Shown: positions 31,701 through 57,354 of the stretch, in pieces
Layout of the letters: the number at the start of each line of letters is the position of its first letter
Numbering within the stretch: the stretch's first letter is position 1
Source: Rallus limicola
Lineage: Eukaryota > Chordata > Aves > Gruiformes > Rallidae
Direction: 5' to 3'
DNA length: 64,000 nucleotides
NCBI GenBank assembly: GCA_022605955.1
Contig: JAKCOZ010000012.1
Location: 29,084,956 to 29,148,955, forward strand
Position numbers and translations under genes: made by a program
Notes under the pieces: model-generated
The model's input: only the letters and a program-made list of their open reading frames with translations
What the model was told of the DNA's origin: nothing
The model's database searches: none

Positions 31701-33170
31701 GCCCATTGCAGTTGCTGCAGCTTGGCTGGCTCTGATTTAGGTGGGTGTCAGCCGGTGTAGCCAGGGTGGTGGGCAGTTAGCATGGCTAACTGTGTGTGTG
31801 TGAAATGTTTTTTTTCCAAAGCTAAGAGCTGAGACGTGAGTAAACCTTGTACAAGAAACGCAGCCAGGGGATTTTCAGTTGATCTTCTGCTGGCCCAGTA
31901 GTTTCTTTGTCTCCTGCTGCTGGCTGCACTGAGAGTTGACTGTTGTGACTGCACGCCTCTGCCAGCCATGGGATGGCAGCAGGGAGAGTTGCTTAAGTGT
32001 CCTGACCACTCCGTGCCCCGTGCTAAACAGCAGCATAAGCTCTGGAACTGTGCAGCGACGAGATGGCATCCGGGGGACTTGCCTCGGCGTGGCCACCCTT
32101 ATGTGACGGAGCTAAGGCGAACTATTGGTCAAGGTAGGAGAATGGAGGGTGGGGAATGGGTTTTGGCAGTTCCTTGTCCTGTGACTTTGGCTTTTGCTTT
32201 GGAAGGCTATGCGGGCAGCATCGGTGGGACACTGCGACCTGTGCGAGCACATCGAGAAAATGAAGCCATCGTCTCTGTATCAGGCTAGTCATGCAACTGG
32301 TGCGTTTGTGTTGGGTTTGTCTCACGTGGTGTGCCTGGGTGTTTTGGTGGTGGAAAGTGTAGCGTGCTGTCCTTAGTTTTGTTGAAAGGCAGGGGATTTT
32401 GGGAATCAGCTCTTGGAATTCATTCTAATACGCAGTGGGGACCTGGTTATGAATCTGTATAGGTGTGTGAGGTAACCTCATGCATCTGTATCATTGGAGC
32501 GAGTAGAACGCAGAAGAACTGGCACGTAAGTGGGTGCGTCTGCAGCGGATCGGTCGTCCCTTGTGCACCAGGCGCTGAACTGTGACAATGAGCAACAAAT
32601 GGAATTCCCCACCTGATGTGCAGTCGCTTCGGACTGATGGCAGGCTGCAGCTGTGTGCTGGTAGGTATGGCAGTCGCGGTCATTCGCACGCTTGCTGTCA
32701 AGCGTGTCGTTGCGCTCTTCCTTGCTCTCAAGCAGGCTCTCTTTGCCACACTTTTCTCTTTCGGTCCCCCATTCTCTTGCCCGCTGCTTGTAGGCCCAAT
32801 ACAGCGACTGGAACCCTGACGCTGTTCTGAGTCTTAACTGTGTTCCTGAGGGTTGGCAAGCCCTGGTCCCACCAAAGCACCTAATTGGACATGCCTCAGG
32901 AGTTAAGCCCAGCCGCCCCCAGCCACCCAGAGCAATCTGAGGTGGGTTGGAACGCAAGGGGGTTTAACCTCTGCCAAATTAGTCTACCTGGTGGTGGATT
33001 GTGACAGCTGTCTGCCTCGGGATCGTAGGGCTTGCCGTGCGCCCTCTTGGACTGATGGCCCATTGCAGTTTTGGCAGCTTGGCTGGCTCTGATTTAGGCG
33101 TGTGTCAGCAGGTGTGGCCAGGGTGTTGGGCAGTGAGCATGGCTAACTGTGTGTGTGTGTGTGTGAAATT

Positions 33171-33218
33171 GTTGTGGAAGGTTTACTCAAGTCTCAGGTC
33201 TTAGGTTTGGAATAAAGA
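33171..33218 (-). other. 48-bp micro-inversion relative to canonical units
   Basis: Canonical units read, on +, TTTTTATTCCAAACC and then GAGACTTGAGTAAACC up to CTACAAC. Here the same 48 bp stand reversed and complemented (GTTGTGGAAGG up to TTGGAATAAAGA) with 45 of 48 bases matching, while both flanks (GTGTGAAAT on the left, AAACGCAGCC on the right) stay in normal orientation. The canonical segment is bounded by GTTT and AAAC, a short inverted repeat. Confidence 0.93.
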
Positions 33219-33469
33219 AAACGCAGCCAGGGGATTTTCAGTTGATCTTCTGCTGGCCCAGGAGTTTCTTTGTCTCCTGGTGCTGGCTGCACTGAGATTT
33301 GACTGTTGTGACTGCACGCCTCTGCCCGCCATGGGATGGCAGCGGGGAGACCTGCTTATGTGCCCTGACCTCTCCGTGCCCTGCGCTAAACAGCAGCATC
33401 AGCTCTGGAACTGTGCAGCGACGAGATGGCATCGGGGGGACTTGCCTTAGAATCTGTGTGGCTTTCCAG

Positions 33470-33935: not shown

Positions 33936-34242
33936 AACTGGCACCTAAGTGGGTGCCTCTGCAGCGGATCAGTCCTCCCCTGTGCACCCAGCACTGAACC
34001 GTGACAACTAGCAACAAATGGAATTACCCACCTTATGTGATTTGATTTATATATAATGTACACTGGAGATGCTTTGTGGTTGTAGTTTTAATTTTGTACT
34101 ATATTTTTCTTGTTAAGTCTAGGTACATTTTTTAAAAACTTTTTTGTCATTCCAGAGCTCTTGTTGTTTTTCAGTTTAATGGAAAGATATCAGTCTGTCA
34201 TGTTTAGGTTATAGAGTCATATGGGCAGTTCAAGGAAAATTA

Positions 34243-34269
34243 TCTTATGCATCTACCAAAAGAAGTGAT
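34243..34269 (-). other. Micro-inversion A (partner 45373-45398)
   Basis: 27 bp here match 45373-45398 only after reverse-complementing (about 22 of 26 aligned bases), while ATTATC on the left and TATGTTRATATG on the right align directly. The segment sits between ATC and GAT, a short inverted repeat. Confidence 0.75.
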
Positions 34270-34424
34270 GGTATGTTGATATGCCTGTGCGTTTTAGCAG
34301 CATTGGATATGACATTTGAGTGTTTAGAAGCCCTGTAAATTGTCTGTTTGAAGAGAGAATGTTCATAAAATTGTAGTGTTATTAGTTGTAAAATTTAGAC
34401 ATAATACCGTATTTTTTGGACTTT

Positions 34425-34465
34425 GACTACTACAAATAAATCACCAAAGCTGCACAAAAAATTGA
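34425..34465 (-). other. Micro-inversion B (partner 45560-45600)
   Basis: 41 bp from GACTACTAC to AAATTGA equal the reverse complement of 45560-45600 with 40 of 41 bases matching. Flanks ACCGTATTTTTTGG (left) and AGAGTTAGACTG (right) are in the same orientation in both copies. Confidence 0.95.
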
Positions 34466-34505
34466 ACCTGAACAGAGTTAGACTGTTGTTGTCTTTTCTT
34501 TTGTA

Positions 34506-34546
34506 TATTGGTCTTTCTCTGTTCCTGTCCTATGTCTGAGACACAC
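34506..34546 (-). other. Micro-inversion C (partner 45628-45668)
   Basis: 41 bp from TATTGGTCTT to GAGACACAC match the reverse complement of 45628-45668 at 35 of 41 positions. The following AGATGATAGTGTTTC is direct in both copies. Confidence 0.88.
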
Positions 34547-34741
34547 ACAGAGAAAGATGATAGTGTTTCTTTCTGCTGTTGTGTTTGGCTGTCTCTCTGA
34601 CTCTCCTGTTTGTGTCTCTTTCTTTCTTTTGTCTTGTTACCTAGCAGCCATTTACTCTTCTCCCCATCTGTCTCACTCCCTGGTCTTTGTCTGTGTCTTT
34701 GTCTCACTGCTGTTTGTTTTTCCATCTTTTTCTAGCCCACT

Positions 34742-34766
34742 CCCCCCCCCCCCCCCCCCCCCCCCC
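34742..34766. repeat. Homopolymer run of 25 C
   Basis: An uninterrupted C run in a pyrimidine-rich stretch. The paralogous site at 45851-45863 has 13 C. Such runs are prone to slippage and sequencing error, so the exact length is uncertain. Confidence 0.9.
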
Positions 34767-34804
34767 GGTTTTGTTATGCAATCTCTGACCTCCTGTCTCT
34801 GTCT

Positions 34805-34840
34805 TTACTGTAGTCCCCTCTCTGTCTCCCCCTACTTAAA
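34805..34840 (-). other. Micro-inversion D (partner 45903-45937)
   Basis: 36 bp from TTACTGTAGTCCCC to CCTACTTAAA match 45903-45937 after reverse-complementing with few mismatches and a one-base gap. CTCTGACCTCC (left) and CCTTGTCTGTCTG (right) are direct. TTTA and TAAA bound the segment. The more diverged third copy at 42260-42620 is pyrimidine-rich on + at this point, as here, which suggests that the 45-kb copy is the inverted one. Confidence 0.9.
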
Positions 34841-35174
34841 CCTTGTCTGTCTGTTTATAAGTCTCACCCCCACATTCATCCATAATTGTTTGGTTCCCCC
34901 GTGTTCATTCTTTGTCTATCTCTCTGGTCTGTCTTACCTGCCCCTCCTTGTTTGTTCCTGTCTAGTTTGCCTCCTGGATTTCTCTTCCTGCCCTCTCTTA
35001 GTTTTGTTAGAAATGCCAAAGGTTCTATGAAAGGACTCAAGGTAGATATGTTAGTGAAGCAGTAATTTAGTTTATGTGCTTGCATGAGCAGGTGGCCTCA
35101 TCAAGTAGGCCTGATTTCGGTCAGAGTTTGTGGCAATTTTAACCTAATGATTTCAGACTGATATAAGGTATATC

Positions 35175-35223
35175 TCATACAGCCATACATATTTGTAACC
35201 TGTCCTGCTTTGTATTAAAATGA
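35175..35223 (-). other. Micro-inversion E (partner 46257-46305)
   Basis: 49 bp from TCATACAGCC to TTAAAATGA match the reverse complement of 46257-46305 at 45 of 49 positions. AAGGTATATC (left) and GTCCCAGGAAGTG (right) are direct in both. The ends TCA and TGA form an inverted repeat. Confidence 0.95.
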
Positions 35224-35628
35224 GTCCCAGGAAGTGATTTCCATAAACTCCTCCCAATTGCGTCTGCACAGTGTCTCATGGTCCTGGTTCTCAGGGGGTC
35301 TCAGTCATGAAAGTTTGAAGTCTTCCTCAGGTTGAACTTTTCCCCTCCTTCCCCTGGAACATGTAATTGTTGCAGGTGGGCACAGTTATCCTTGGGATGT
35401 TTCCTTCTTATCAGTCCTGAATCAGCTTCAAATTATTCCAGCGCATTAATCAGTCAGAACTAACTACCCTAGAAGCACTAGAGTTGTTCAAGTGAGAGAT
35501 TTTTGATGTGAGGTCACCTCTGACATAACTACTCTGGCACTTAAAAGCCTCCCATAGTAAGCCCCCCTTAAACAGGCATCTTGCTATCAAGCACCCTTTT
35601 ACTATACATTAATCCTAACCTTATTGTG

Positions 35629-35666
35629 TTAGACAAAGAATCATAGAAAAAGGTTGAAGACTTTAC
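35629..35666 (-). other. Micro-inversion F (partner 46724-46761)
   Basis: 38 bp from TTAGACAAAG to AGACTTTAC match 46724-46761 reversed at 36 of 38 positions. GTTAG and CTAAC flank the segment. The adjacent ~20 bp (35607-35628) also look inverted relative to 46703-46723, but less clearly. Confidence 0.92.
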
Positions 35667-35689
35667 TAACTTTTCAAAATAACTGTAAA

Positions 35690-35730
35690 TTTTATCTATA
35701 TCTGCTAACAGAACTGTGTACTTGAGAGAG
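35690..35730 (-). other. Micro-inversion G (partner about 46780-46820)
   Basis: The core 35707-35729 (AACAGAACTG to TTGAGAGA) is a 23-of-23 match to 46780-46802 in reverse complement. The similarity extends leftwards to about 35690 with more mismatches. Confidence 0.88.
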
Positions 35731-36379
35731 AAACTTTGTGATACCACAACAAAAATTCTTTAATAGTATTCCCTCTTATCTTATGTACTCTCTGTTGTAT
35801 CCTAAATTCTCTAAAAGGATTTCTAATAAGGCAGCCTTTTTCCTCTACAAAATACAACAAGGCTTTTCTGTTTCAAAAAGCAACATTTCCCAGCATTTTC
35901 TACAGTTTTTGTCCTCGTCTTAGTGTTCCACTCTCTCTCCCTCTACTTTCTCTTTTCCTGCCCTCTCACCTTTGCTGGGGCCTGTGTTGTCCTGTCATTA
36001 GCACCCGCCACTGTGGTCCCCTTGCCCCTTCATCGTCACTTGCCTCTGTAATGTCCCCCCACTTTGTCCCTCCCCCTCTTTGTTCCCCTGTTTTTGCCCC
36101 TTCACTGTGTTATCACCTCTTTTCAGTTGCCTCATTATCTCCTCCCCCTGCTGTGGTCCTTGTACTTCCTTCTTTGTGTCCCCTTGATTCCCTCTCTCTC
36201 TGTAGTCCACTTTCCTTTCTTGGTCTGCTCTGCACCTGTGGTGTGTGTCCTCTTCATGGTCTCTGCTGTTTCTGGTGCCGTTCCCACCTTCACCATGTTC
36301 TCTTCTTCATTCCCCTGCTGCTCTTGATTTCTCCTGCTTTGTGTCTTTGCTTTGGCAATAACGTCCTTCTACCCCTTTC

Positions 36380-38323
36380 TTAGTCCCTCCTTCCTGTAGG
36401 TGCTGCCCTTCCTTGTGCCTCTCCACTTCCTTGTATCTCCCTCTGTCTCTTAGAATTGAAAGGGACAACTATAAAGCGCAACTTAGGTCTCACACAGCTT
36501 ACCACCGGAGCCTTTCGTTCCGGGTGCTTTTGGTTCCGGGGTGTGCTGCTCGGAAAACCTTCCCTCGGAGAACGTGACGCTGCGACTTTGGTTCCGGGTG
36601 CTTTTGGTTCCGGGCTGTGCTGCCCGCAAAACCTTCCCTCGGACAAAGTGACCCCGCGACTTTGGTTCCGGGTGCTTTTGGTTCCGGGATGTGCTGCCCG
36701 GAAAACCTTCCCTCGGAGAAAGTGACCCCGCGACATTGGTTCCGGGTGCTTTTGGTTCCGGGCTGTGCTGCCCGCAAAACCTTCCCTCCGAGAAAGTGAC
36801 CCCGCGACTTCGGTTCCGGGTGCTTTTGGTTCCGGGCTGTGCTGCACTGAAAACCTTCCCTCGGACAATGTGACCCCATGACTTTGGTTCCGGGTGATTT
36901 TGGTTCCGGGCTGTGCTGCACTGAAAACAGTTCCCCTGCAAAGAAGTGACCCTGTGACTTTGGTTCCGGGTGCTTTTTGTTCCGGGCTGTGCTGCACTGA
37001 AAACAGTTCCCCCGCAAAGAAGTGACCCTGTGACTTTGGTTCCGGGTGCTTTCGGTTCCGGGGTGTGCTGCACTGAAAACCATCCTTCGGACAATGTGAC
37101 CCCGTGACTTTGGTTCCGGGTGATTTTGGTTCCGGGCTGTGCTGCACTGAAAACAGTTCCCCTGCAAAGAAGTGACCCTGTGACTTTGGTTCCGGGTGCT
37201 TTTTGTTCCGGGCTGTGCTGCACTGAAAACAGTTCCCCCGCAAAGAAGTGACCCTGTGACTTTGGTTCCGGGTGCTTTTGGTTCCGGGGTGTGCTGCACT
37301 GAAAACCTTCCCTCGGACAATGTGACCCCGTGACTTTGGTTCCGGGTGATTTTGATTCCGGGCTGTGCTGCACTGAAAACAGCTCCCCTGCAAAGAAGTG
37401 ACCCTGTGACTTTGGTTCCGGGTGCTTTTTGTTCCGTGCTGTGCTGCACTGAAAACTGTTCCTCCGGAAAGAAGGGACCCTGTGACTTTGGTTCCGGGTG
37501 CTTTCGGTTCCGGGCTGTGCTGCACTGAAAACCATCCTTCGGACAATGTGACCCCGTGACTTTGGTTCCGTGTGCTTTTGGTTCCGGGCTGTGCTGCACT
37601 GAAAACAGTTCCCCTGCAAAGAAGTGACCCTGTGATTTTGGTTCCGGGTGCTTTTTGTTCCGTGCTGTGCTGCACTGAAAACAGTTCCTCCAGAAAGTAG
37701 GGACCCTGTGACTTTGGTTCCGGGTGCTTTTGGTTCCGGGGTGTGCTGCACTGAAAACCTTCCCTCGGAGAATGTGACCCTGTGTCTTTGGTTCCGGGTG
37801 CTTTCGGTTCTGGGGTGTGCTGCACTGAAAACAGTTCCCCCGGAAAGAAGGGACCCTGTGACTTTGGTTCCGGGTGCTTTTGGTTCCGGGGTGTGCTGCA
37901 CTGAAAACTTTCCCTCGGAGAATATGACCCTGTGATTTTGGTTCCGGGTGCTTTTGGTTCCGGGCTATGGTGCCCTGAAAACCTTCCCTCGGAGAATGTG
38001 ACCCTGTGACTTTGGTTCCGGGTGCTTTCGGTTCCGGACTGTGCTGCTATGAAAACAGTTCCCCTGCAAAGAAGTGACCCTGTGACTTTGGTTCCGGGTG
38101 CTTTCGGTTCCGGACTGTGCTGCACTGAAAACAGTTCCCCCGCAAACAAGTGCCCCTGTGACTTTGGTTCCGGGTGCTTTTGGTTCCGGGGTGTGCTGCA
38201 CTGAAAACAGTTCCCCCGCAAACAAGTGACCCTGTGATTTTGGTTCCGGGTGCTTTTGGTTTCGGGGTGTGTGTCACGGGTAACAGTCTCCTGGAAACAG
38301 TGTCCGTATTTTGTTCTGTGCAA
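36380..38323 (-). CDS. Long repeat-encoded open frame (doubtful)
   Basis: A 647-codon - strand frame spanning minisatellite A. Its translation cycles through three phases of the 74-bp unit, giving alternating motifs such as NQKHPEPKSQGH, SPEPKAPGTKV and GTKSTRNQSHRV. Overlapping frames of 472 and 366 codons are open in the other two phases, so single-base indels barely close it. There is no start context, domain or splice support. Similar - frames occur over array B. Probably not a gene. Confidence 0.1.
   Translation of the reverse strand: MHRTKYGHCFQETVTRDTHPETKSTRNQNHRVTCLRGNCFQCSTPRNQKHPEPKSQGHLFAGELFSVQHSPEPKAPGTKVTGSLLCRGTVFIAAQSGTESTRNQSHRVTFSEGRFSGHHSPEPKAPGTKITGSYSPRESFQCSTPRNQKHPEPKSQGPFFPGELFSVQHTPEPKAPGTKDTGSHSPREGFQCSTPRNQKHPEPKSQGPYFLEELFSVQHSTEQKAPGTKITGSLLCRGTVFSAAQPGTKSTRNQSHGVTLSEGWFSVQHSPEPKAPGTKVTGSLLSGGTVFSAAQHGTKSTRNQSHRVTSLQGSCFQCSTARNQNHPEPKSRGHIVRGKVFSAAHPGTKSTRNQSHRVTSLRGNCFQCSTARNKKHPEPKSQGHFFAGELFSVQHSPEPKSPGTKVTGSHCPKDGFQCSTPRNRKHPEPKSQGHFFAGELFSVQHSPEQKAPGTKVTGSLLCRGTVFSAAQPGTKITRNQSHGVTLSEGRFSVQHSPEPKAPGTEVAGSLSRREGFAGSTARNQKHPEPMSRGHFLRGKVFRAAHPGTKSTRNQSRGVTLSEGRFCGQHSPEPKAPGTKVAASRSPREGFPSSTPRNQKHPERKAPVVSCVRPKLRFIVVPFNSKRQREIQGSGEAQGRAAPTGRRD
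36509..38275. repeat. 74-bp minisatellite array A (about 24 copies)
   Basis: The unit is about 74 bp, with GGTTCCGGG twice per unit (roughly GGTTCCGGGTGCTTTTGG then TTCCGGG), followed by CTGTGCTGCACTGAAAAC and one of two middles: CCTTCCCTCGGAGAATGTGA or AGTTCCCCCGCAAAGAAGTG. The two middles alternate irregularly. Because 74 is not a multiple of three and the unit lacks stops on the - strand, all three - frames stay open for long stretches, the longest at 36380-38323 (647 codons). I regard that as a by-product of the repeat. Confidence 0.95.
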
Positions 38324-39019
38324 TTTTGGTCTTTTTGATAGTCAATTTGACACTCCTGGATCTAATATTCACTATAAACACTCAGATTGAGGCTCAATTG
38401 GGCTCTTATTTTCCTTCTCCATTTCTCTCTTTATTTCTGGCTGGACTTTAGTTCCAATTTTGGCATTCCAACTTCAGTTCTGTAGCCTGTTGGTATTTCT
38501 GTCTCTGGTTCGGCAGACCTGTCATTGGTGATCATAGAAACACATTGGCAATTGATTTATTTCTTTTCCAATCCACTCAATTTTGAATTTTTCCCCTCTG
38601 TCTCGTTCACTGTGCAGAATTTATTAAAGTTTCCCCTCTATATACTGCAGCCTGTTGCTACCTTTTTCTTTCCCCATCTCAGTTTGTATGGCTGCTTGTC
38701 TCTCTTCATTCCTCCCTTTATAGTGCTGTGCTCTGATTCCTTTCTCCTCCTGATTCTCTCTCCATTTCATACCCCCTGTCTTTCAGCTCTGCTCCTCTGT
38801 CTGTTCACCCACCCTTGCCTCCCCTCTCTCTCTGTCTCTAATTTTCCATTAATCCATCTCCCTGTGGAAGGCCTCAGGAGATTTCAGGATGGGACCATCT
38901 TTCAGTGCTGACACCTATAGTTTGGGAGCTGTCGCTGGACCAGGATCAGCAGGGAAAGTGCCCTTGTCACACCCACACCCCCAAATGACCCTTGCACACA
39001 GAGGGAAAATTGGTGGGTT
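38276..39019. other. Unassigned pyrimidine-rich stretch
   Basis: C/T-rich on + (TTCCTTCTCC, CTCTCTCTGTCTC), like the spacers but not alignable by eye over any length. I see no exon, promoter or mobile element in it. Confidence 0.5.
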
Positions 39020-40660: not shown

Positions 40661-40929
40661 ACAATAGTAGTAGCCATTTTTCTACCAAGTGTCATCTAAT
40701 GTTTATCTGTTCCTATTTACAGCCAGAAAGATTAAAACTATTTACATACCAGCACAACAGGTGCAGTTGCAGAAAGAAACAGTATCATTGTTATCGGTGA
40801 GAGTTGCTTTCTCCATTCAGCAGCCCACATCCCACAGAGCTAACTCAAGACAGGAAACACTCTTCTGCTCCTCCAGTGCTTTTATAGCTTCTGCAGGCAG
40901 GCCCCTCCCCTTTCCCAAGGGCCCATGGG
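40661..40929. other. Upstream region of the block 1 promoter
   Basis: Partly alignable to 53830-53985 upstream of the block 2 promoter: both carry a CTGCTCCTCCAG element, GCTTTTA and TTCTGCA before the GC-rich segment. No separate feature was recognised between this homology and the interspersed repeat. Confidence 0.45.
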
Positions 40930-40987
40930 AAGGGTGGTGGGTGGGGCCTGGGGTATATAAGCCAGCAGTCTTCCCCTAGGCAGCTCA
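40930..40987 (+). promoter_or_regulatory. TATA promoter of block 1
   Basis: GGTGGGTGGGGCC (GT/GC box-like), then CTGGGGTATATAAG with TATATAA at 40954-40960, then TCATTCT, which fits the YYANWYY initiator with its A at 40987, 33 bases from the first T of the TATA box. The block 2 promoter has the same order, the same GGGGCCTGGGGTATATAAG core, the same GGCAGCTCATTCT and the same 33-base spacing. Two independent copies keeping this arrangement is strong support. Confidence 0.75.
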
Positions 40988-41083
40988 TTCTCCTGCCGGC
41001 TTTCTCCAGCATCAGTGCTCTGGCTTTCATTCAGCAGATGGAGCTTTGTATTCTGCTTTGCTTTTTAGGAAGATGCACCTGAG
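40987..41083 (+). other. Predicted first exon, block 1 (97 nt)
   Basis: Runs from the predicted initiator to the donor CCTGAG|GTAAGAG (GT at 41084). It aligns with 54049-54142 of block 2. An ATG at 41038 opens a 14-codon hydrophobic-looking frame that stops at TGA right before the donor. The block 2 copy lacks that ATG, so it is probably not the main start. Confidence 0.6.
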
Positions 41084-42240
41084 GTAAGAGCTTAAGGAGT
41101 ACTCAGTGTTAAGCAGCACATAGATAATAGAAAGTGTTCTCATAGGTGGTTTTGGTTTGTTTTTTTTAACTTTTTTTGGATTGCATTTTTAGGCATTTTT
41201 AAGATGACCTTATCCAGATATCTATCGGTTCTAAGCGTGTGGTATTTTTCTGATATTCCTGACTGTACAGAAGATAGAACCTCACCTTTTATTAACCAGC
41301 TTTTCTCTATGACATGTAAGTTGCGAGCATCACTTCTCCCAACAGGCCCAATGATGAGATTATCTAGCTGTTGTCAGGGTGAGCATTTTGTCTGCTTATA
41401 GAGCTTTAGCTTTCCCCATTAAAGTAACAGGGATTCAATACATAGCATTTTCCCAGTGCCACGGCTGCTCACAGACTTCCTAATGGTTCCCAGAATGCTG
41501 TGGGTTTTTTCTAGCTCCTTTAGAGGTTGCAGCAGGTCCCTCATGGGTCCCTCCTACCAACCAGAGTTTGGTAGGAGACAGAACATAGCAGTTATCTGCA
41601 AAAGACGAGTTATGCCTTGCAAAGGTAGTTTTTGGGGAACTGTGCAACCGGGTTGGTAAACTGTCAGTCTGCATCTAGGTGACTCACTTGATGCTCTTTG
41701 CAGATGTAGAGGGAGGAGCAGAGTGCCATAAGAAAATGTGTCTGCACACATTATGTAAGGTACAATGTGACTAGTGGGCATATGACTATTTTATCCATTT
41801 TGGTCTGTAATTTTTTTTGAAGTAACTAAGTGCCAGATCTCAGCACCGGTGGTGACCTCGCTCAGGTGTTCTGAGATTAGCGGGCTAAAGCAGCAATAAA
41901 TTTTTCAGGTGTGGTCTTGTCAGTGAAGTTCTAACTATCTCTCTTGCTTTACAGGCAGTAAGAGCCTGTCAAGAAAGGCTTTTGGATCCCTGGACTCCTC
42001 AAAGCTAAGTAGAAGGAGCTGTAGAAGAGAGGAAGGATGGAGAGGAGGCTGGGAGAGGCTGGGTAAGGCCGCACAGGGAGGAGCGGGTCACTTGCTAGGG
42101 CAATGCCAGGGTGTGTCGGGCAGGGCAGCTGTAGTCCACGTCTGTCTTCACGCTTGTTGTTTGGCATGTGTTCTGTGTTTAGTTCTTCTCTGGGTGCCAG
42201 CATCCTCTTTGTGCTCAATGGCACCCAGCGTGTGCTCTCT
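41084..42240 (+). other. Intronic region of block 1, with a relic 53-nt exon
   Basis: Colinear with 54143-55950 of block 2, apart from an insertion of about 720 bp there. Matching landmarks are CTATATAATTG/CAGATATCTATCGG, CCTGACT, CAAGCCCTAACGATCAG/CAGGCCCAATGATGAG and TCTAGCT. A decayed counterpart of the conserved 53-nt exon lies at about 41526-41570, with acceptor CTCCTTTAGAG intact and the length down to 45 nt. A strong acceptor CTCTTGCTTTACAG ends at 41954. From 42108 the sequence GGGTGTGTCGGGCAGGGCAG and the following 130 bp match 55804-55945. Confidence 0.6.
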
Positions 42241-42622
42241 TTCTTTGTCTCCTTCTCTTTCAGGCCGTCTCTTGTCTGCCCTTCTCTCAGCCCCTCAGTT
42301 TTCTCCCGGTCTCTCTCAGTCCCTGGTCTTTGCCTGTCTCTGTCGCAGTGCTGTTTGTTTCTCAGTCTTTCTGTACACTCCTTCTGTCACACTATCTCTG
42401 ACCCCCTTTGTCTCCCTCATTTCTCTGTCTCTCTGCTTTCACCCTCTTTGTTTATCTCTCTATCTTCACTATCCCTCATCCCACCCAATTGTTTGGTTTC
42501 CCCTCTCCCTTGTTTGTCTACTTCTCTGGTCTCTCCTCCCTACCCCTCCTTGTTTGGTCTGGTGTAGTTTTCCTCCTGGATTCCTCTTTGTCTGCTCTCT
42601 TGGTTGCTACATGTGTCTTACT
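42241..42622. repeat. Third, more diverged copy of the pyrimidine-rich spacer part
   Basis: Aligns with 34570-35010 and 45690-46080: shared landmarks are CCCTGGTCTTTG, CAGTGCTGTTTGTTT, CTCTGACC, CCAATTGTTTGGTTTCCCC, CCTCCTTGTTTG and TTCCTCCTGGATTCC. It lies before array 2, whereas the other two copies lie after an array. Confidence 0.7.
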
Positions 42623-42675: not shown

Positions 42676-45107
42676 TCTTGGACTGATGGCCCATTGCAGT
42701 TGCTGCAGCTTGGCTGGCTCTGATTTAGGTGGGTGTCAGCCGGTGTAGCCAGGGTGGTGGGCAGTTAGCATGGCTAACTGTGTGTGTGTGTGAAATATTT
42801 TTATTCCAAACCTAAGAGCTGAGACGTGAGTAAACCTTCTACAACAAACGCAGCCAGGGGATTTTCAGTTGATCTTCTGCTGGCCCAGTAGTTTCTTTGT
42901 CTCCTGCTGCTGGCTGCACTGAGAGTTGACTGTTGTGACTGCACGCCTCTGCCCGCCATGGGATGGCAGTGGGGAGAGTTGCTTAAGTGCCCGGACCTCT
43001 CCGTGCCCCGTGCTAAACAGCAGCATAAGCTCTGGAACTGTGCAGCGACCAGATGGCATCCGGGGGACTTGACTCGGCGTGGCCACCCCTATGTGACGGA
43101 GCTAAGGCGAACTATTGGTCAAGGTAAGAGAATGGAGGGTGGGGAATGGGTTTTGGCAGTTCCTTGTCCTGTGACTTTGGCTTTTGCTTTGGCAGGCTAT
43201 GCGGGCAGCATCGGTGGGACACTGCGACCTGTGCGAGCGCATCGAGAAGGTGAAGCCATCGTGTCTGTATCAGGCTAGTCATGCAGCTTGTGCGTTTGTG
43301 TTGGGCTTGTCTCACGTGGTGTGCCTGGGTGTTTTGGTGGTGGAAAGTGTAGCGTGCTGTCCTTAGTCTTGTTGAAAGGCAGGGTATTTTGGAAATCAGC
43401 TCTTGGAATTCATTCTAATACGCAGTGGGGACCGGGTAATGAATCTGTATCATTGGAGAGAGTAGAACGCAGAAGAACTGGCACGTAAGTGGGTGCGTCT
43501 GCAGCGGATCGGTCGTCCCCTGTGCACCCAGCGCTGAACTGTGACAACTAGCAACAAATGGAATTCCCCACCTGATGTGCAGTCACTTCGGACTGATGGC
43601 GGGCTGCAGCTGTGTCATGGAAGGTATGGCAGTCGCAGTCATTCGCACGCTTGCTGTCAAGCGTGTGGTTGCCCTCTCCCTTGCTCTCAAGCACGCTCTC
43701 TTTTCCACACTTTTCTCTTTTGGTCCCCCATTCTCTTGCCCGCTGCTAGTTGGCCCAATACAGCGACTGGAACCCTGACGCTGTTCTGAGTCTTAACTGT
43801 GTTCCTGAGGGTTGGCAAGCCCTGGTCCCACCAAAGCACCTAATTGGACATGCCTCAGGAGTTAAGCCCAGCCGCCCCCAGCCACCCAGAGCAATCTGAG
43901 GTGGGTTGGAACGCAAGGGGGTTTAACCTCTGCCAAATTAGTCTACCTGGTGGTGGATTGTGACAGCCATCTGCCTCGGGATCGTAGGGCTTGCCGTGCG
44001 CCGTCTTGGACTGATGGCCCATTGCAGTTGCTGCAGCTCTCCGTGCCCCGCGCTAAACAGCAACATAAGCTCTGGAACTGTGCAGCGACGAGATGGCATC
44101 CGGGGGACTTGCCTCGGCGTGGCCACCCCTATGTGACGGAGCTAAGGCGAACTATTGGTCAAGGTAAAGAGAATGGAGGGTGGGGAATGGGTTTTGGCAG
44201 TTCCTTGTCCTGTGACTTTGGCTTTTGCTTTGGCAGGCTATGCGGGCAGCATCGGTGGGACACTGCGACCTGTGCGAGCGCATCGAGAAGGTGAAGCCAT
44301 CGTCTCTGTATCAGGCTAGTCATGCAGCTTGTGCGTTTGTGTTGGGTTATTCTCACGTGGTGTGCCTGGGTGTTTTGGTGGTGGAAAGTGTAGCGTGCTG
44401 TCCTTAGTTTTTTTGCAAGGCAGGGGATTTTGGAAATCGGCTCTTGGAATTCATTCTAATACGCAGTGGGGACCGGGTTATGAATCTGTATAGGTGTGTG
44501 AGGTAACCTCATGCATCTGTATCATTGGAGCGAGTAGAACGCAGAAGAACTGGCATGTAAGTGGGTGCGTCTGCAGCGGATCGGTCGTCCCCTGTGCACC
44601 CAGTGCTGAACTGTGACAACTAGCAACAAATGGAATTCCCCACCTGGTGTGCAGTCACTTCGACTGATGGCGGGCTGCAGCTGTGTGATGGAAGGTATGG
44701 CAGTCGCAGTCATTCGCACGCTTGCTGTCAAGCGTGTGGTTGCGCTCTCCCTTGCTCTCAAGCACGCTCTCTTTTCCACACTTTTCTCTTTCGGTCCCCC
44801 ATTCTCTTGCCCGCTGCTTGTAGGCCCAATACAGCGACTGGAACCCTGACGCTGTTCTGAGTCTTAACTGTGTTCCTGAGGGTTGGCAAGCCCTGGTCCC
44901 ACCAAAGCACCTAATTGGACATGCCTCAGGAGTTAAGCCCAGCCGCCCCCAGCCACCCAGAGCAATCTGAGGTGGGTTGGAACGCAAGGGGGTTTAACCT
45001 CTGCCAAATTAGTCTACCTGGTGGTGGATTGTGACAGCCATCTTCCTCGGGATCGTAGGGCTTGCCGTGCGCCGTCTTGGACTGATGGCCCATTGCAGTT
45101 GCTACAG
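42676..45107 (+). repeat. Array 2: two units of the 1.3-kb repeat
   Basis: One full unit and one short unit (288-bp deletion near 44038), with exon b at 43196 and 44237, both G state (donor present). The array opens and closes with the same ~32-bp sequence, from TCTTGGACTGATGGCCC to CAGTTGCT, so it holds a whole number of units plus one terminal repeat. The second unit carries the CTCATGCATCTGTAT form of the ~31-bp insertion, otherwise seen only at 17017 and 32206 in array 1, so the source was near one of those variants. Confidence 0.92.
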
Positions 45108-47645
45108 ATGTTATTGTTGTGATGTAGTTGTGTGCCAGAATGTGTGGACAGGTTGTTGGTGTTTGTGATTTGATATAGATATAGTGTACACTGAAGATCG
45201 TTCGTGGTTGTAGTTTGAATTTTTTACTGTATTTGTATTGTTAAGTCTAGGTACAATATTTGAGAACTTTTTTGTCATTGCAGAGCTCTTGTTGTTTTTC
45301 AGGTTAATGGAGAGATATCAGTCTGTCATGTTCAGGTGGTAGTGTCGTAAGTGCAGTTTAAGGAATATTATCATGATTTATTTTAGTAGAGCATAAGATA
45401 TGTTAATATGTCTGTGTGTTTTAGTAGCATTGGATACGATATTTCAGTGTTTATAAGCCCTGTAAAGTGTCTGTTTGAAGAGAGAAAGATCATAAAATTA
45501 CAGTGTTATTAGTTGTAAAATTGAGACATAATACCGTATTTTTTGGTCTTTCTTGAGTGTCAATTTTTTGTGCAGCTTTGGTGACTTATTTGTAGTAGTC
45601 AGAGTTAGACTGTTGTCGTCTTTTCCTGTGTGTCTGAGACACAGGAATGGACCAGAGAAATACCAATACACAGAGAGAGATGATAGTGTTTCTTTCTGCT
45701 GTTGTGTTTGGCTGTCTGTCTGACTGTCCTGTTTGTGTCTCTTTCTTTCTTTTGTCTTATTACCTAGCAGCCATATGTCTCACTTACTGGTCTTCATCTG
45801 TGTCTTTGTGTCACTGCTGTTTGTTTTTTCCATCTTTTTCTGGCCCCCCTCCCCCCCCCCCCCGGTTTTGTTACGCACTCTCTGACCTCCTTTCTCTCTT
45901 TCTTCAAAGTAGGGGGAGAGAGAGAGGACTACAGTAACCTTGTCTGTCTGTTTATAAGTGTCACCCCCACATTCACCCACAATTGTTTGGTTCCCCCATG
46001 TTCGTTCTGTCTGTCTTACATGCCCCTCCTTGTTTGTTCCTGTCTAGTTTGCCTCCTGGCTTTGTCTTCCTGCCCTCTCTTAGTTTTGTTAGAAATTCCA
46101 AAGGTTATATGAAATGACTTAAGGTAGATATGTTAGCGAAGCAATAATTTATTATATGTGCTTGCAAGAATAGGTGGCCTAATCAAGTAGGCCCAATTTC
46201 AGTCAGAGTTTGTGGCAATTTTAACCTAATGGTTTCAGACTGACATAAGGTATATCGCATTTTAATACGAAGGAGGACAGGTTACAAATATGTATGGCTG
46301 TATAAGTCCCAGGAAGTGATTTCCATTAACTCCTCCCAATTGCGTCTGCACAGTGTCTCATGGTCATGGTTGTCAGGGGGTCTCAGTCATGAAAGTTTCA
46401 AGTCTTACTTAAGGTGAACTTTTCCCCCTCCTTCCTCTGGAATGTGTGTAGTTGTAATTGTTGCAGATGGGCACAGTTAGCCTTGGGATGTTTCCTTCTT
46501 ATCAGTCCTCCATCAGCTTCCAATTATTCCAGAGCATTAATCAGTCAGAAATAACTACCCTAGAAGGACTGGAGTTGTTCACGTGACACATTTTTGATGT
46601 GCGGTGACCTCTGAAATAACTACTTTGTCACTTAAAAGCCTCCTCTAGTAGGCCCCCCCTTAAACAGGCATCTTGCTATCAAGCATCCTTTTACTATATT
46701 GTATTAGTAAAGTTGGGATTCATGTGAAGTCTTCAACCCTTTTCTATGATTCTTTGTCTAAATTTTCTAAATAACTGTATCTCTCAAGTACACAGTTCTG
46801 TTATCAGAAAGTTTAAATTTTATACATCTTCTAACACAACAGCAAAACTTCTTTAATAGTATTCCCTCTTATATTATGTACTCTCTGTTGTATCCTAAAT
46901 TCTGTAAAAGGATTTCTAGTAAGGCAGCCTTTGTCCTCTACAAAATACAACAAGGCTTTTCTGTTTTTAAAAGCAACATTTCCCAGCATTTTCTACAGTT
47001 TCTGCCCTCGTCTTAGTGTTCCTCTCTCTTTCCCTTCCCTTTTTCTTTTCCTGACATCTCACCATTGCTGGGGTCTGTCTTGTTCTGTCATTAGTCGCCC
47101 CCCCCCCCAACTTTGGTCCCCCTGCCCCTTCATCGTCACTTGCCTCTGTAATGTCCCCGCAATTTGTGTTCCCCCCCCTATTTATTCCCCCGTTTTTGCC
47201 CCTTCACTGTGTTATCCCCTCTTTTCAGTTGCCCTATTCTCTCCTCCCCCAGCTGTGGTCCTTGTCCTCCCTCCTTTGTGTCCCAGCCATTACCTGGTTT
47301 TCTTCCTCTCTGTATTCCACTTTTGTTCATTGGTCTGCTTTGCACCCCTGAGGTGTGTGTCCTCTTCATGGTCTCCCCTGTTTATGGTGGTGTTCCCTCC
47401 TTCACCATGCTCTTTTCTTTGTTCCCCTCTTCTTGATTCCTCTTCCTTTGCGTCTTTGCTTTGGCAATAAGTTCCTTCTACCCCTTTCTTTGGTTCCTCC
47501 TTCCTGTAGGTGCTGTACTTCCTTGTGCCTCTCCTCTTCCTTGTACCTCCCTCTGTCTCTTAGAATTGAAAGGGACAAATACCACTGGGACTACTATGAA
47601 GTGGAATATAGTTCTCCACTCTTCTTGACACGGTTTAACCAGGGA
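45108..47645. repeat. Spacer B, paralogous to spacer A
   Basis: From 45166 (GATTTGATATAGATATAG) to the minisatellite this tracks spacer A with roughly 85-90% identity. The inverted partner segments are 45373-45398, 45560-45600, 45628-45668, 45903-45937, 46257-46305, 46724-46761 and about 46780-46820. The 13-C run is at 45851-45863. The first 58 bp have no counterpart that I can see. No gene was recognised. Confidence 0.85.
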
Positions 47646-48652
47646 GCCTTTGGTTCCGGGTAATTTCAGTTCCGGGGTGTGCTGCACTGAAAACAGTTTC
47701 CCCGCAAAGAAGTGACCCTGTGACTTTGGTTCCGGGTGCTTTTGGTTCCGGGGTGTGCTGCACTGAAAAGAGTTCCCCCGCAAAGAAGTGACCCTGTGAC
47801 TTTGGTTCCGGGTGCTTTTGGTTCCGGACTGTGCTGCACTGAAAACAGTTTCCCCGCAAAGAAGTGACCCTGTGACTTTGGTTCCGGGTGCTTTTGGTTC
47901 CGGACTGTGCTGCACTGAAAAGAGTTCCCCCGCAAAGAAGTGACCCTGTGACTTTGGTTCCGGGTGCTTTTGGTTCCGGGCTGTGCTTCGCTGAAAACAG
48001 TTCCCCCGGAAAGTGGTGACCCTGTGACTTTGGTTCCGGGTGCTTTTGGTTCCGGGCTGTGCTTCACTGAAAATTGTTCCCCCGGAAAGAGGTGACCCTG
48101 TGACTTTGGTTCCGGGTGCTTTTGGTTCCGGGCTGTGCTGCACTGAAAAGAGTTCCCCCGCAAAGAAGTGAACCTGTGACTTTGGTTCCGGGTGCTTTTG
48201 ATTCCGGGGTGTGCTGCACTGAAGTCCTTCCCTCGGAGAATGTGACCCTGTGACTTTGGTTCCGGGTGCTTTTGGTTCCGGGGTGTGGTGCACTGAAAAC
48301 AGTTCCCCCGCAAAGAAGTGACCCTGTGACTTTGGTTCCGGGTGCTTTTGGCTCCGGGCTGTGCTTCGCTGAAAACAGTTCCCCCGCAAAGAAGTGACCC
48401 TGTGACTTTGGTTCCGGGTGCTTTTGGTTCCGGGCTGTGCTTCACTGAAAATTGCTCCCCCGGAAAGAGGTGACCCTGTGACTTTGGTTCCGGGTGCTTT
48501 CGGTTCCGGGCTGTGCTGCACTGAAAACCTTCCCTCGGACAATGTGACCCTGTGAATTTGGTTCCGGGTGCTTTTGGTTCCGGGCTGTGCTTCGCTGAAA
48601 ACAGTTCCCCCGCAAAGAAGTGAACCTGTGACTTTGGTTCCGGGTGCTTTTG
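47199..48652. repeat. 1454-bp tandem duplication, left copy
   Basis: Contains the last ~447 bp of spacer B and minisatellite B1. The right copy starts at 48653. At the join, GGGTGCTTTTG runs straight into CCCCTTCACTGTG, and the original site reads GTTTTTGCCCCTTCAC, so TTTTGCCCC is shared microhomology. Confidence 0.85.
47646..48652. repeat. 74-bp minisatellite array B1 (about 13-14 copies)
   Basis: The same unit as array A. The CCCCCGCAAAGAAGTG middle dominates here, and a CCCCCGGAAAGAGGTG variant appears that is rare in array A. Confidence 0.95.
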
Positions 48653-49100
48653 CCCCTTCACTGTGTTATCCCCTCTTTTCAGTTGCCCTATTCTCTCCTC
48701 CCCCAGCTGTGGTCCTTGTCCTCCCTCCTTTGTGTCCCAGCCATTACCTGGTTTTCTTCCTCTCTGTATTCCACTTTTGTTCATTGGTCTGCTTTGCACC
48801 CCTGAGGTGTGTGTCCTCTTCATGGTCTCCCCTGTTTATGGTGGTGTTCCCTCCTTCACCATGCTCTTTTCTTTGTTCCCCTCTTCTTGATTCCTCTTCC
48901 TTTGCGTCTTTGCTTTGGCAATAAGTTCCTTCTACCCCTTTCTTTGGTTCCTCCTTCCTGTAGGTGCTGTACTTCCTTGTGCCTCTCCTCTTCCTTGTAC
49001 CTCCCTCTGTCTCTTAGAATTGAAAGGGACAAATACCACTGGGACTACTATGAAGTGGAATATAGTTCTCCACTCTTCTTGACACGGTTTAACCAGGGAG
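48653..49100. repeat. Duplicated spacer piece between B1 and B2
   Basis: Near-identical copy of 47199-47645, including AGCCTTTGGTTCCGGGTAAT at the start of the next minisatellite. Very few differences, so the duplication is recent. Confidence 0.9.
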
Positions 49101-50157
49101 CCTTTGGTTCCGGGTAATTTCGGTTCCGGGCTGTGCTGCACTGAAAACAGTTTCCCCGCAAAGAAGTGAACCTGTGACTTTGGTTCCGGGTGCTTTCGGT
49201 TCCGGGGTGTGCTGCACTGAAAACAGTTTCCCCGCAAAGAAGTGACCCTGTGACTTTGGTTCCGGGTGCTTTTGGTTCCGGGCTGTGCTGCACTGAAGTC
49301 CTTCCCTCGGAGAATGTGACCCTGTGACTTTGGTTCCGGGTGCTTTTGGTTCCGGGGTGTGGTGCACTGAAAACAGTTCCCTCGGAGAATGTGACCCTGT
49401 TACTTTGGTTCCGGGTGCTTTTGGTTCCGGACTGTGCTGCACTGAAAACAGTTCCCCCGCAAAGAAGTGACCCTGTTACTTTGGTTCCGGGCGCTTTTGG
49501 TTCCGGGCTGTGCTTCGCTGAAAACAGTTCCCCCGGAAAGTGGTGACCCTGTGACTTTGGTTCCGGGTGCTTTTGCTTCCGGGCTGTGCTTCACTGAAAA
49601 TTGTTCCCCCGGAAAGAGGTGACCCTGTGACTTTGGTTCCGGGTGCTTTCGGTTCCGGGCTGTGCTGCACTGAAAACCTTCCCTCGGACAATGTGACCCT
49701 GTGAATTTGGTTCCGGGTGCTTTTGGTTCCGGGCTGTGCTTCGCTGAAAACAGTTCCCCCGGAAAGAAGTGACCCTATAACTTTGGTTCCGGGTGCTTTT
49801 GGTTCCGGGCTGTGCTGCACTGAAAAGATTTCCCCCGCAAAGAAGTGAACCTGTGACTTTGGTTCCGGGTGCTTTTGGTTCCGGGGTGTGGTGCACTGAA
49901 AACAGTTCCCTCGGAGAATGTGACCCTGTTACTTTGGTTCCGGGTGCTTTTGGTTCCGGGCTGTGCTGCACTGAAAACCTTCCCTCGGACTATGTGAACC
50001 TGTGACTTTGGTTCCGGGCGCTTTTGGTTCCAGGCTGTGCTGCACTGAAAACAGTTCCCCCTGCAAAGAAGTGAACCTGTGACTTTGGTTCCGGGCTGTG
50101 CTGCACTGAAAACCTTCCCTCGGACAATGTGACCCTGTGACTTTGGTTCCGGGTGCT
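49101..50157. repeat. 74-bp minisatellite array B2 (about 14 copies)
   Basis: Copy of B1 made by the 1454-bp duplication, with its own rearrangements near the right end, where one unit is shortened (CCGGGCTGTGCTGCACTG straight after ACTTTGGTT at about 50087). It ends at GGTTCCGGGTGCTGCA. Confidence 0.92.
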
Positions 50158-53690: not shown

Positions 53691-53985
53691 CCTAGAAAAA
53701 TCCCCAGGACAGTAGTATTAGGGGAGTAGTATTAGGGGGGTTCCCCAGAAGCGGCTGTCCCTGTTCCCCAGGATTAGAGGGTCTTCCCGTGGTCTCCTCA
53801 TGCTTACATACCTGGTTTGATCATCAGTATGGATGTTTAGCAGAGTAGAAATTGTTTTCAGCAGGAATCCCTTTCTGCAGTCAGCATCCCTTCTCTGATA
53901 AACAGCTCTGGTCAGAAGAGCCAGACCTGCTCCTCCAGCTGCTTTTAATCCTTCTGCAATCAGGAACCTCCCTCTTTCAGGCAGG
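53691..53985 (+). promoter_or_regulatory. Upstream region of the block 2 promoter
   Basis: Homologous in part to 40700-40930 (CTGCTCCTCCAGCTGC, TTTTAATCCTTCTGCA). No extra motif is clear enough to name. Confidence 0.4.
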
Positions 53986-53989
53986 TGTG

Positions 53990-54049
53990 GTAGGGGCAGG
54001 GGGCGGGGCCTGGGGTATATAAGGTACTTGCCTTGCCCAGGGCAGCTCA
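53990..54049 (+). promoter_or_regulatory. TATA promoter of block 2
   Basis: GGGGCGGGGCC is an SP1-type GC box. TATATAA is at 54016-54022, and the initiator TCATTCT has its A at 54049, 33 bases from the start of the TATA box. It is a paralogue of the block 1 promoter, with a better GC box. Confidence 0.78.
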
Positions 54050-54142
54050 TTCTGCTTTGTGTCTCCTGTTGTATTGTTCTGGTTTTCATTTTGCAGTTGG
54101 AGTCTTGGAGTCACTGCCGTTGTTTTGGTTCATTCTTTTCAG
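54049..54142 (+). other. Predicted first exon, block 2 (94 nt)
   Basis: From the initiator to the donor TTTTCAG|GTAAGCG (GT at 54143). It aligns with the block 1 first exon (GTTTTCATT against GCTTTCATT, CAGTTGGAG against CAGATGGAG). There is no ATG in the aligned position, so it is probably non-coding leader. Confidence 0.6.
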
Positions 54143-54435
54143 GTAAGCGTTTTGTAAGTAGCTAAGAGTGACCAGCGTCTCCCTAATCAAAAGTACTTAT
54201 CAATGTAGTCTTGCCCATGTTTGGCTCGTTTATTTTGTGTTGCCTTTTCAGTGTCTTTTTAAGGCAACTCAGTCCTATATAATTGCTGTTGAGGGTTTTT
54301 TCCTGGATATGTGGCATTTTACCAGCACTCCTGACTTTGCACTAAATAGACTCTTGGGGGGGGTTCAACAACTTTGGACTTTAACTTGCCAGCTGTTAGC
54401 ACCAGTTCTGTTACAAGCCCTAACGATCAGCTCGT

Positions 54436-55195
54436 CTAGCTAGTGTTTGAGTAAGCTTCTTGCTTACATATAGAGGGTTCAGGGGGGTGGTGGGGGGGGG
54501 TCGGGGGAGTTTGGGAGGCTTAGGAGCTGTTTTGGGGGGGTCCGAGGGGGTCTCGGGGGGGGTAAAGGGGGTCTCGGAGGGTTCTGGGAGGGTACAGGGG
54601 AGCTAGGAGGTGCCGGGGGGGTCCCAGGGGAGGGTTTTGGGATTCTGGGGGGGTTCTGGGAGGGTCGGGTGTCCCAGACAGGGGTCGAGTGGGGTTTTGG
54701 GAGGTGCAGGGGGGCTGTGAGCAGTTTTGGGGGCGTAGAGGGGGCCTAGGAGGTGCTGGGGAAGGTCCTGGGGTTCCTAGGAGGGGTTCCAGGGGGGTCT
54801 GGGGGGAGTTTGGCAGGAAGAGAGGGGTAGGAGGTGCTAGGAAGGTCCTGAGGAGGGGTTTGGGGGAGGGTCTGAGGGGCAGGGAGGGTGTTTTGGGCAA
54901 TTGGGGCGTTCCTGGGGGGGGGCGTTGAGGGAGAGCTGGGGTTTTGCGGTAGTACAGGGGGGCTGGGAGGGGTTTTTGGGGGATGTGGGTTGCTGGGGGG
55001 GTCTCTGCATGTCTCGGGGGGGGGGTCCTAAGCTCCCCCCCTCCCCAGGACCCCTTCTGCGAGCGGCAGGGGGAGTTTGTCTGCAGCAGGAGGGGGTGAC
55101 AGGGGGGTTTGTGAGGGACCCCTACCTCTGCCCCCCCTCTGCAGCCTGTGAGTCTTTTAGCCAGCGTTTGAGTAAGCTTCTTGCTCACATATAGA
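54436..55195 (+). other. G-rich insertion bounded by ~36-bp direct repeats
   Basis: GTTTGAGTAAGCTTCTTGC and its surroundings occur at 54436-54473 and again at 55158-55195 with few changes; block 1 has the site once (about 41366-41401). Between them lie about 680 bp, mostly G-rich irregular repeats (GGAGGTGCTGGGGAAGGTCC, GGGGGGGTC) that are G-quadruplex-prone. Near the right end CCTCCCCAG (AG to 55048) is followed by an open stretch reading DPFCERQGEFVCSRRG, then a stop, and a second acceptor-like CCCCCTCTGCAG ends at 55143. It could be a captured exon fragment with minisatellite, or a local duplication. Confidence 0.55.
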
Positions 55196-56786: not shown

Positions 56787-56796
56787 ATGGGGCCAG

Positions 56797-57354
56797 ATGG
56801 GATGCGTACTGCTGCAGCCACGGAGTTGTCGAGGGGAAGACCACAAGGAGGTAGGTCGGCCAATGGTGTCGGTGCGATGAGATGGTCAGCGCCTCTGTGC
56901 CATCTATAAGACTTCTGTGTGGCTGTTTTTCGTAGGTACAAAGCGAGAAGGAAACTGGTTCATTTCCAGGGTCGGTGACTCGGGCCGGGTAAGCCATTTC
57001 TAGCGGGCCGGTGTCACGCCGCAGGTGAGTTTTATAGGCATCCCTTGTTTGTGTGTTACAGGCCAGGCCCGAGCCTCCACGCTGCCATCCGTAAACAGCA
57101 TAGGCCAGGCGAGCGACCGGTCAGGGTAAGGTAACGGAAGGTGGGAACCGGTTACGGGCAGTCTCTCGGCACACATCTCGTTCAGACCCCGGAGACGGTG
57201 GCGGGACCTACACGGGACACCGAGAAGGTGAGGCGGCCCTCGTCTGCGGCGGCTCCTAATGCCACGGCGGGCAGACGGAGCTCTCACCTCTCTGTTCTTG
57301 CAGGTGCCGCACAGCCATTCGCAACCTTTGGAAGCGGAGGAGAAGCGGACGTGA
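56797..57354 (+). CDS. Hypothetical spliced CDS, unit A (about 87 codons)
   Basis: Joining E1-E5 at their GT-AG sites leaves one frame open through all five exons: ATG at 56797 (starts MGCVLLQPRSC), VQSEKETGSFPG across E2, PGPSLHAAIRKQHRPGERP in E3, TPETVAGPTRDTEK in E4 and VPHSHSQPLEAEEKRT in E5, stopping at TGA 57352. No domain or family was recognised; the product would be basic and probably disordered. An alternative frame from the ATG at 56787 stops in E3, and that alternative is the one matching the ARLEPQRDHP frame of the 33-kb unit. Hence the coding claim is weak: introns and lengths are conserved better than any single frame. Confidence 0.25.

What the first reader, a model, noticed from the sequence alone, without database searches (positions are those of the whole stretch)
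34243..35730. Seven micro-inversions in 1.5 kb between two paralogous spacers
Aligning 34037-36508 with 45166-47645 by eye, seven segments of 23-49 bp match only when one copy is reverse-complemented: 34243-34269/45373-45398, 34425-34465/45560-45600 (40 of 41), 34506-34546/45628-45668, 34805-34840/45903-45937, 35175-35223/46257-46305 (45 of 49), 35629-35666/46724-46761 (36 of 38) and the core 35707-35729/46780-46802 (23 of 23). Flanks stay direct. Identity inside the inversions is as high as outside, so they arose during paralogue divergence. Several are bounded by 3-5-base inverted repeats (GTTAG/CTAAC, TCA/TGA, TTTA/TAAA). Isolated microinversions are known in avian introns; this density is far above what I would expect and points to a local process such as hairpin-templated strand switching or repair.
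Basis: seen in the sequence. Interest (0 to 1): 0.92.

Follow-up and report, generated by a model that had tools for sequence, protein, structure and literature searches.

The report
Microinversion hotspot in chromosome-end repeat
A repeated 2.4-kb stretch near many contig ends of one large genome has had about eleven tiny pieces flipped in place while few of its letters changed, which makes it an unusually rich place to learn how such small DNA flips arise.

Summary
The seven micro-inversions are real: they score 20-44 near the diagonal, against at most 16 on 14 shifted bands. Two loci hold more than one event.

The "two spacers" are two families, A and B, of a high-copy macro-repeat. Of 32 A places on contigs over 1 Mb, 30 lie within 500 kb of a contig end. 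The 27 distinct A copies read are A-state at all seven loci; a second B copy is B-state at all seven. Misassembly is excluded.

A third type, D, and two B-like copies, E and F, give the split A,D | B,E,F. I place three inversions on the A branch, one new one on F and seven on the AD|BEF branch: 11 against 155 two-state core sites, about 0.07 per substitution; published rates convert to 10^-5 to 8x10^-4. A twelfth, in the neighbouring array unit, is polymorphic among copies.

Inverted repeats at breakpoints exceed a simulated null (P=0.005); a looser test does not (P=0.12). At locus 6, two repeat-defined flips turn D into A (108 of 110 columns). Best reading: recurrent strand switching at short inverted repeats, where one flip can make the repeat for the next.

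The parts
34037..36471 (+). Spacer type A, the part alignable to B
   Evidence: 27 distinct near-identical copies read
45166..47581 (+). Spacer type B, the part alignable to A
   Evidence: second copy on C9; 24 B-type rows of 40 scored
34241..34277 (+). Locus 1, inverted against B 45364-45400; D is A-like
34420..34477 (+). Locus 2, inverted against B 45548-45605; D is B-like, so changed on the A branch
34492..34560 (+). Locus 3, inverted against B 45616-45683; D is A-like, outgroup C weakly favours the A state as ancestral
34805..34837 (+). Locus 4, inverted against B 45907-45937; D and outgroup C are A-like
35174..35224 (+). Locus 5, inverted against B 46256-46306; D and the array outgroup are A-like
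35601..35625 (+). Locus 6P, inverted against B 46706-46730; D is A-like
35629..35666 (+). Locus 6Q, inverted against B 46724-46761 and against D; with the 9-base loop flip next to it, changed on the A branch
35686..35741 (+). Locus 7, two overlapping inversions against B 46773-46838 (core 35707-35729); D is A-like
45219..45241 (+). Stretch of B (A 34092-34112) that is inverted only in copy F (L051)
33170..33219 (+). Inverted stretch in the last array unit beside A; orientation differs among A copies
42234..42605 (+). C, diverged homologue of A 34588-35003, used as outgroup at loci 3 and 4
44419..44526 (-). Array-unit homologue of A 35146-35255 on the other strand, used as outgroup at locus 5

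Best explanation
The spacer is a recurrent hotspot of short in-place inversions inside a high-copy macro-repeat that lies mostly near contig ends. SHOWN: flips that fall on at least three branches of the five spacer types compared, about 0.07 per substitution; both states at independent loci; inverted repeats at breakpoints above a matched simulation. INFERRED: during replication (at a fork, or in break-induced copying between chromosome ends) the growing strand switches to the opposite strand at a short inverted repeat, copies some 9-50 bases backwards and switches back at the other arm, leaving the segment flipped between intact flanks. At locus 6 the first flip turned one of several direct CTAAC repeats into its inverted partner GTTAG, and the second flip lies exactly between that GTTAG and a downstream CTAAC, so one inversion made the substrate of the next. 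Spread among copies then fixed each state within a family.
For: Seven loci far above null. Tree and placement of events with D, E and F: A branch (locus 2, loop and Q at 6), F branch (one), AD|BEF branch (1, 3, 4, 5, 6P, two at 7). Before D was known, strand composition had put 2 and 6Q on the A side and 3, 4, 5 on the B side, which D bears out. Breakpoint repeats exceed simulation. Locus 6: flips at ACTTTA/TAAAGT and then GTTAG/CTAAC turn D into A with 108 of 110 identical columns; a perfect repeat of 5 or more bases abuts a random boundary pair with chance 0.009, of 6 or more 0.0025. Locus 7: a two-step path through TGTTA/TAACA gives 103 of 120 columns against 85 of 124 direct. Pre- and post-inversion copies of the array unit coexist.
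Against: A loose flank test shows no excess of inverted repeats. Only locus 3 and, less, 35603-35625 fold clearly better than shuffles. At 6Q and 7 the repeat at the A/B-estimated breakpoints was 0-1 base. Locus 7 direction is open, and strand composition leans to A/D derived there. L003 could be a conversion rather than a pre-inversion copy. The 27 A copies differ by only 17 substitution variants, too few to test present activity in A. My scans looked for in-place inversions, so unbalanced switches would have been missed.
Confidence: 0.65

Rival explanations
1. [quoted passage not shown]
For: Explains clean flips with very short repeats (model read); break-induced copying with inverted-repeat switching is reported at human subtelomeric breaks (PMC13065848 passages), and this repeat lies mostly near contig ends.
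Against: Sequence alone does not separate it from fork switching; the 6- and 5-base perfect arms at locus 6 suit both.
Confidence: 0.27
2. One catastrophic rearrangement made all the flips at once.
For: Seven of them map to one branch (AD|BEF), where order is not resolved.
Against: Others fall on the A and F branches and in the array unit.
Confidence: 0.03
3. Gene conversion from reverse-oriented relatives of the spacer.
For: Array units hold an opposite-strand relative of A 35115-35261.
Against: That relative is only about 70% identical, while the flipped segments match their partners at about 92% overall. No other reverse-strand source is in the window; the rest of the genome was not searched for one.
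Confidence: 0.03
4. Misassembly, chance alignment or palindromes.
For: Highly repetitive region at a contig end.
Against: 27 distinct A copies agree at all seven loci; B-state copies were read on C9 (two places) and C71 besides the window; the 24 B-type rows lack the reverse blocks that all 15 A-type rows show at loci 2, 5 and 6; score nulls.
Confidence: 0.01
5. A site-specific recombinase or transposase flips the segments.
For: None beyond clean flips.
Against: The repeats at different loci differ (ACTTTA, GTTAG, CTCAT), though no motif search was run; PMC8755829 argues that so short a loop is physically impossible.
Confidence: 0.01

Closest known systems
[quoted passage not shown]
   Same: Pure in-place flips of tens of bases (17-33 there) with short inverted repeats at the edges
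   Different: 59 in a whole genome, five orders of magnitude rarer than substitutions; here about 11 per 155 two-state sites, some up to about 50 bases, overlapping and adjacent
Avian microinversion hotspots CLTC and CLTCL1 (PMC3123225, sections 9-11 and passages read)
   Same: Local excess with overlapping events
   Different: 1.56-1.58 per Mb per My there, which I convert to about 8x10^-4 per substitution; no stem-loops or motifs found there, and overlapping events were in separate lineages, whereas here overlapping flips sit in one lineage
Inverted-repeat spacer inversion by template switching in yeast (PMC8604942, passages read)
   Same: Spacer flips between two inverted arms
   Different: Coding sequence, spacers giving 2-5 bp changes, arms longer than 9 bp there; here 9-50 bases with arms of about 6 bp or less
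Short-range template switches in great apes (PMC7954356, passages read)
   Same: A nearby reverse-strand template explains a mutation cluster
   Different: Only 5.5% of gold-standard events there leave length unchanged; the flips here keep length to within a few bases, but I searched for that kind only
Chromoanasynthesis by mitotic microhomology-mediated break-induced replication at subtelomeric breaks (PMC13065848, passages read)
   Same: Chromosome-end setting, microhomology, switching at inverted repeats
   Different: Insertions from many loci in one event there; here balanced flips spread over several branches

Membership tests
Microinversion | Segment replaced in place by its reverse complement with collinear flanks | tested here: met
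Microinversion | Inverted repeats at the boundaries | tested here: inconclusive
   Summed excess P=0.005 but P=0.12 in a looser test; clear at locus 6
Microinversion hotspot | Rate well above background of comparable sequence | tested here: met
   9 inversions and 117 substitutions in the A/B core against 0 and 252 in three control sets, Fisher P=4e-5; 7 and 117 against 1 and 166 in the array, P=0.012; published rates
Template-switch spacer inversion | Each flipped segment is bounded by paired arms in the ancestral state | tested here: inconclusive
   Met at locus 6 with D as proxy; weak at several loci
Template-switch spacer inversion | Arises during DNA synthesis | not testable with these tools
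   Sequence only
Single-event chromoanasynthesis | All changes on one branch | tested here: not met
   A, F and AD|BEF branches

The most novel reading that the evidence does not exclude
Inversion cascades: in a chromosome-end repeat copied between ends by a switching-prone replication process, a first micro-flip converts a pair of direct short repeats into an inverted pair, which then directs the next flip. Flips so accumulate along with substitutions, at hundreds to thousands of times the human-chimpanzee rate, and scramble a non-coding sequence in place while nearly keeping its length.
Probability: 0.3. Interest if true: 0.85.

Novelty: new variant of a known kind. Interest (0 to 1): 0.75.

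Why it matters
Microinversions are normally so rare that their mechanism is argued from isolated cases; the avian survey says further hotspots must be identified to understand them (PMC3123225, section read). Here one 1.5-kb stretch gives about eleven events, with types before and after an event in the same genome, so breakpoint rules, order of events and the cascade idea can be tested directly. It also warns that aligners read such loci as fast-evolving sequence.

Tried and rejected
Chance and palindromes: rejected. A first bubble scan with strict settings found only three of the seven A/B inversions and nothing else; a banded scan replaced it.

Stable hairpins as a general cause: windows holding inversions fold slightly better than others (P=4e-5 and 0.002, overlapping windows), but shuffled z-scores show this rests mainly on locus 3 and less on 35603-35625.

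Hypermutation in B: relative-rate counts A10:B16 against C and A5:B4 against the array show no clear asymmetry; adjacent mismatches are not clearly enriched (24 v 18.8 expected, P=0.12).

Gene content: no Rfam match at gathering score, no tRNA, no Pfam hit in ten translated frames; one protein search found nothing at E 0.001. A 76-base-repeat motif had no exact match in viral contigs.

Organism: named by no tool. CpG depletion of A and B (0.13 and 0.21), genome size 1.395 Gb, a CR1-tail-like motif and an ACTGGGAGG minisatellite would fit a bird; the link to birds of the size and the minisatellite is recalled. A CR1-end string typed from recall found chance-level matches only.

Literature: searches (two were for motifs) listed no title or abstract start about inversion cascades or subtelomeric microinversion hotspots. 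Beyond the nine papers opened, only listings were seen, long lists were capped, and the library omits many journals.

Full report
OBSERVATION. The stretches 34037-36471 (A) and 45166-47581 (B) align at 81% gapped identity in one collinear match. A banded scan gives seven near-diagonal inverted blocks with scores 20, 44, 37, 25, 43, 34 and 32; the best score on 14 shifted diagonals is 16. Other near-diagonal hits score 19 or less; the 19 overlaps the flank of locus 3. Allowing one inversion raises the local score by 18, 52, 36, 36, 50, 38 and 28. Of nine low-identity bubbles in the whole alignment, eight lie in these loci. The right part of the spacer (35760-36471; 77 substitutions) has none.

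MORE THAN SEVEN. Locus 7 is best explained by two overlapping inversions (38 direct, 66 with one, 81 with two; second gain reached in 0 of 100 null runs). Locus 6 also needs more than one (33.5, 68.5, 77; 1 of 100 null runs), and type D later resolved it. A scan of 322 self-matches of 400 bases or more found one further inversion, near 33170-33219 in the last array unit; 19 units in which the motif was recognised have the other orientation (28 units of 900 bases or more were found). Ten more specific pairs gave no other new block; the block between B and C at locus 4 (score 14, null up to 15) agrees with B being flipped there.

WHERE IT IS. The window is the last 64 kb of contig C12 of a 1.395-Gb genome in 1102 contigs. 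A has 892 candidate places; the 40 scored are 99-100% identical. Thirty-two of the 40 are on contigs over 1 Mb; 30 of these lie within 500 kb of an end, all 30 pointing to that end; two are internal. This looks like a subtelomeric macro-repeat, though no telomere was shown. B has 589 candidates; by identity and reverse blocks the 40 scored are 24 B-type, 15 A-type and one third type, D. The 27 distinct A copies read are A-state at all seven loci, and the B copy on C9 near 34.90 Mb is B-state at all seven with two mismatches and one gap to B. Neither state is a misassembly.

HISTORY. D (L049, C68) is 93.7% identical to A and 85.8% to B on aligned columns, inverted blocks included. E (L050) and F (L051) are about 97% identical to B. 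On 1917 columns outside the loci, 118 two-state sites split A,D from B,E,F; private sites are A 33, D 27, B 13, E 22 and F 24. In the core (up to 35760) these are 75, 15, 14, 8, 16 and 22; with five other sites, the two-state core sites sum to 155. D is A-like at 1, 3, 4, 5, 6P and 7 and B-like at 2 and 6Q (the automatic label for 7X was ambiguous and A under a looser rule). E and F are B-like at all seven, E at 6Q by a small margin; the A-E scan did not list 6Q as a reverse block. So 2 and the 6Q pair changed on the A branch, and the rest between AD and BEF. Outgroups place 4 and 5, and weakly 3, on the B side. Directions at 1 and 7 are open: a strand-composition model, right in 74-88% of calibration segments, gives P(A ancestral) 0.22-0.43 and 0.16-0.60 for them. 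F has a private inversion at B 45219-45241 (106 direct, 133 with one inversion). My count: A three (2, the 6 loop, 6Q), F one, AD|BEF seven (1, 3, 4, 5, 6P and two at 7), D, B and E none; 11 in all, the 9-base loop included.

ACTIVITY. Of eight A-copy flanks read, the window's included, the array-unit inversion is present in six, absent in L003 and deleted in L004. L003 could instead have been converted by an ordinary unit. The 27 A copies show 17 substitution variants and no inversion variant at the seven probed loci, too little divergence to test present activity there.

RATE. Eleven per 155 sites is about 0.07 per substitution. Within the window, 9 inversions with 117 substitutions in the A/B core compare with 0 and 252 in three control sets (Fisher P=4e-5), and 7 with 117 against 1 and 166 in the array (P=0.012). 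Human-chimpanzee figures are about 10^-5 (PMC8755829) and, from 0.983 per Mb at 0.0133 divergence (PMC3227671), by my conversion 7x10^-5. Avian figures of 0.25 and, for CLTC, 1.56 per Mb per My (PMC3123225) with 2.0x10^-9 per year in zebra finch (PMC12047795) convert to about 10^-4 and 8x10^-4. That clock assumes a bird. Surveys differ in how short an inversion they count. High copy number should not itself raise the ratio if spread is neutral (inference).

MECHANISM. With breakpoints estimated the same way on simulated inversions, complementary runs at the breakpoints are longer than expected (13 v 5.0, P=0.005; 17 v 5.5 with one mismatch, P=0.0007; B copies P=0.02). A looser flank test gave P=0.12 and 0.28, a simple positional one 0.03 and 0.0035 (A) and 0.04 and 0.06 (B). 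At locus 6, D holds ACTTTA-CTAACACAA-TAAAGT. Flipping that 9-base loop creates a GTTAG facing a downstream CTAAC; flipping the 33 bases between gives 108 of 110 identical columns with A, against 89 of 115 without and 101 matches for the best single flip in the range tried. At locus 7 a two-step path using TGTTA/TAACA gives 103 of 120, against 85 of 124 direct and 97 of 124 for one flip, but its direction is not settled, and read the other way the repeat was there beforehand. I commit to strand switching at short inverted repeats during replication or break-induced copying, with break repair as the main rival. General hairpin stability and one catastrophic event are not supported.

SPECTRUM. 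Substitutions here are transversion-rich: A/B 94 transitions to 100 transversions, array columns 73 to 86, against 64 to 27 in a nearby duplication and 381 to 245 (redundant pairs) in the repeat at 60.5-63.2 kb, and a vertebrate mean ratio of 2.3 quoted in PMC12047795. This may reflect error-prone copying or something unrelated.

PAPERS. PMC8755829: parts 1-3 of 5. PMC3123225: passages and sections 9-11. PMC3227671: abstract and part 1 of the discussion. Passages only: PMC8604942, PMC7954356, PMC12047795, PMC2612034, PMC13065848, PMC8794818.

Noticed in passing
1-33447, 34037-38330, 45166-50095: Transversion-rich differences: array columns 73 transitions to 86 transversions, A/B 94 to 100, the 76-base repeats about 0.74-0.75, against 64 to 27 in the duplication at 56771-60465.
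   Followed up: partly
35115-35261 and array units, e.g. 44419-44526 on the minus strand: Array units carry a roughly 70% identical relative of part of spacer A on the opposite strand.
   Followed up: partly
46741-46756 and 35634-35649: The only two matches of the window to a CR1-tail-like motif (two mismatches each; 0.04 expected) are the two copies of the segment flipped at locus 6Q.
   Followed up: partly
40787-41403 and 53851-54475; 42067-42239 and 55762-55934: Old duplicated stretches at 61.5% and 70% identity; no inversion block between them.
   Followed up: partly
47194-47645 and 48648-49099: 452 bases repeated without a difference inside B and its 76-base repeat tract.
   Followed up: no
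L001-L028: Spacer A is strikingly uniform: 17 substitution variants among 27 distinct copies on many contigs, as if recently spread or homogenised.
   Followed up: partly
36380-38323: The 76-base repeat is open over 647 codons on the minus strand; not tested whether it is a gene.
   Followed up: no
60515-64000: The contig ends in a 297-base tandem repeat followed by a 20-base repeat array that runs to the last base.
   Followed up: no
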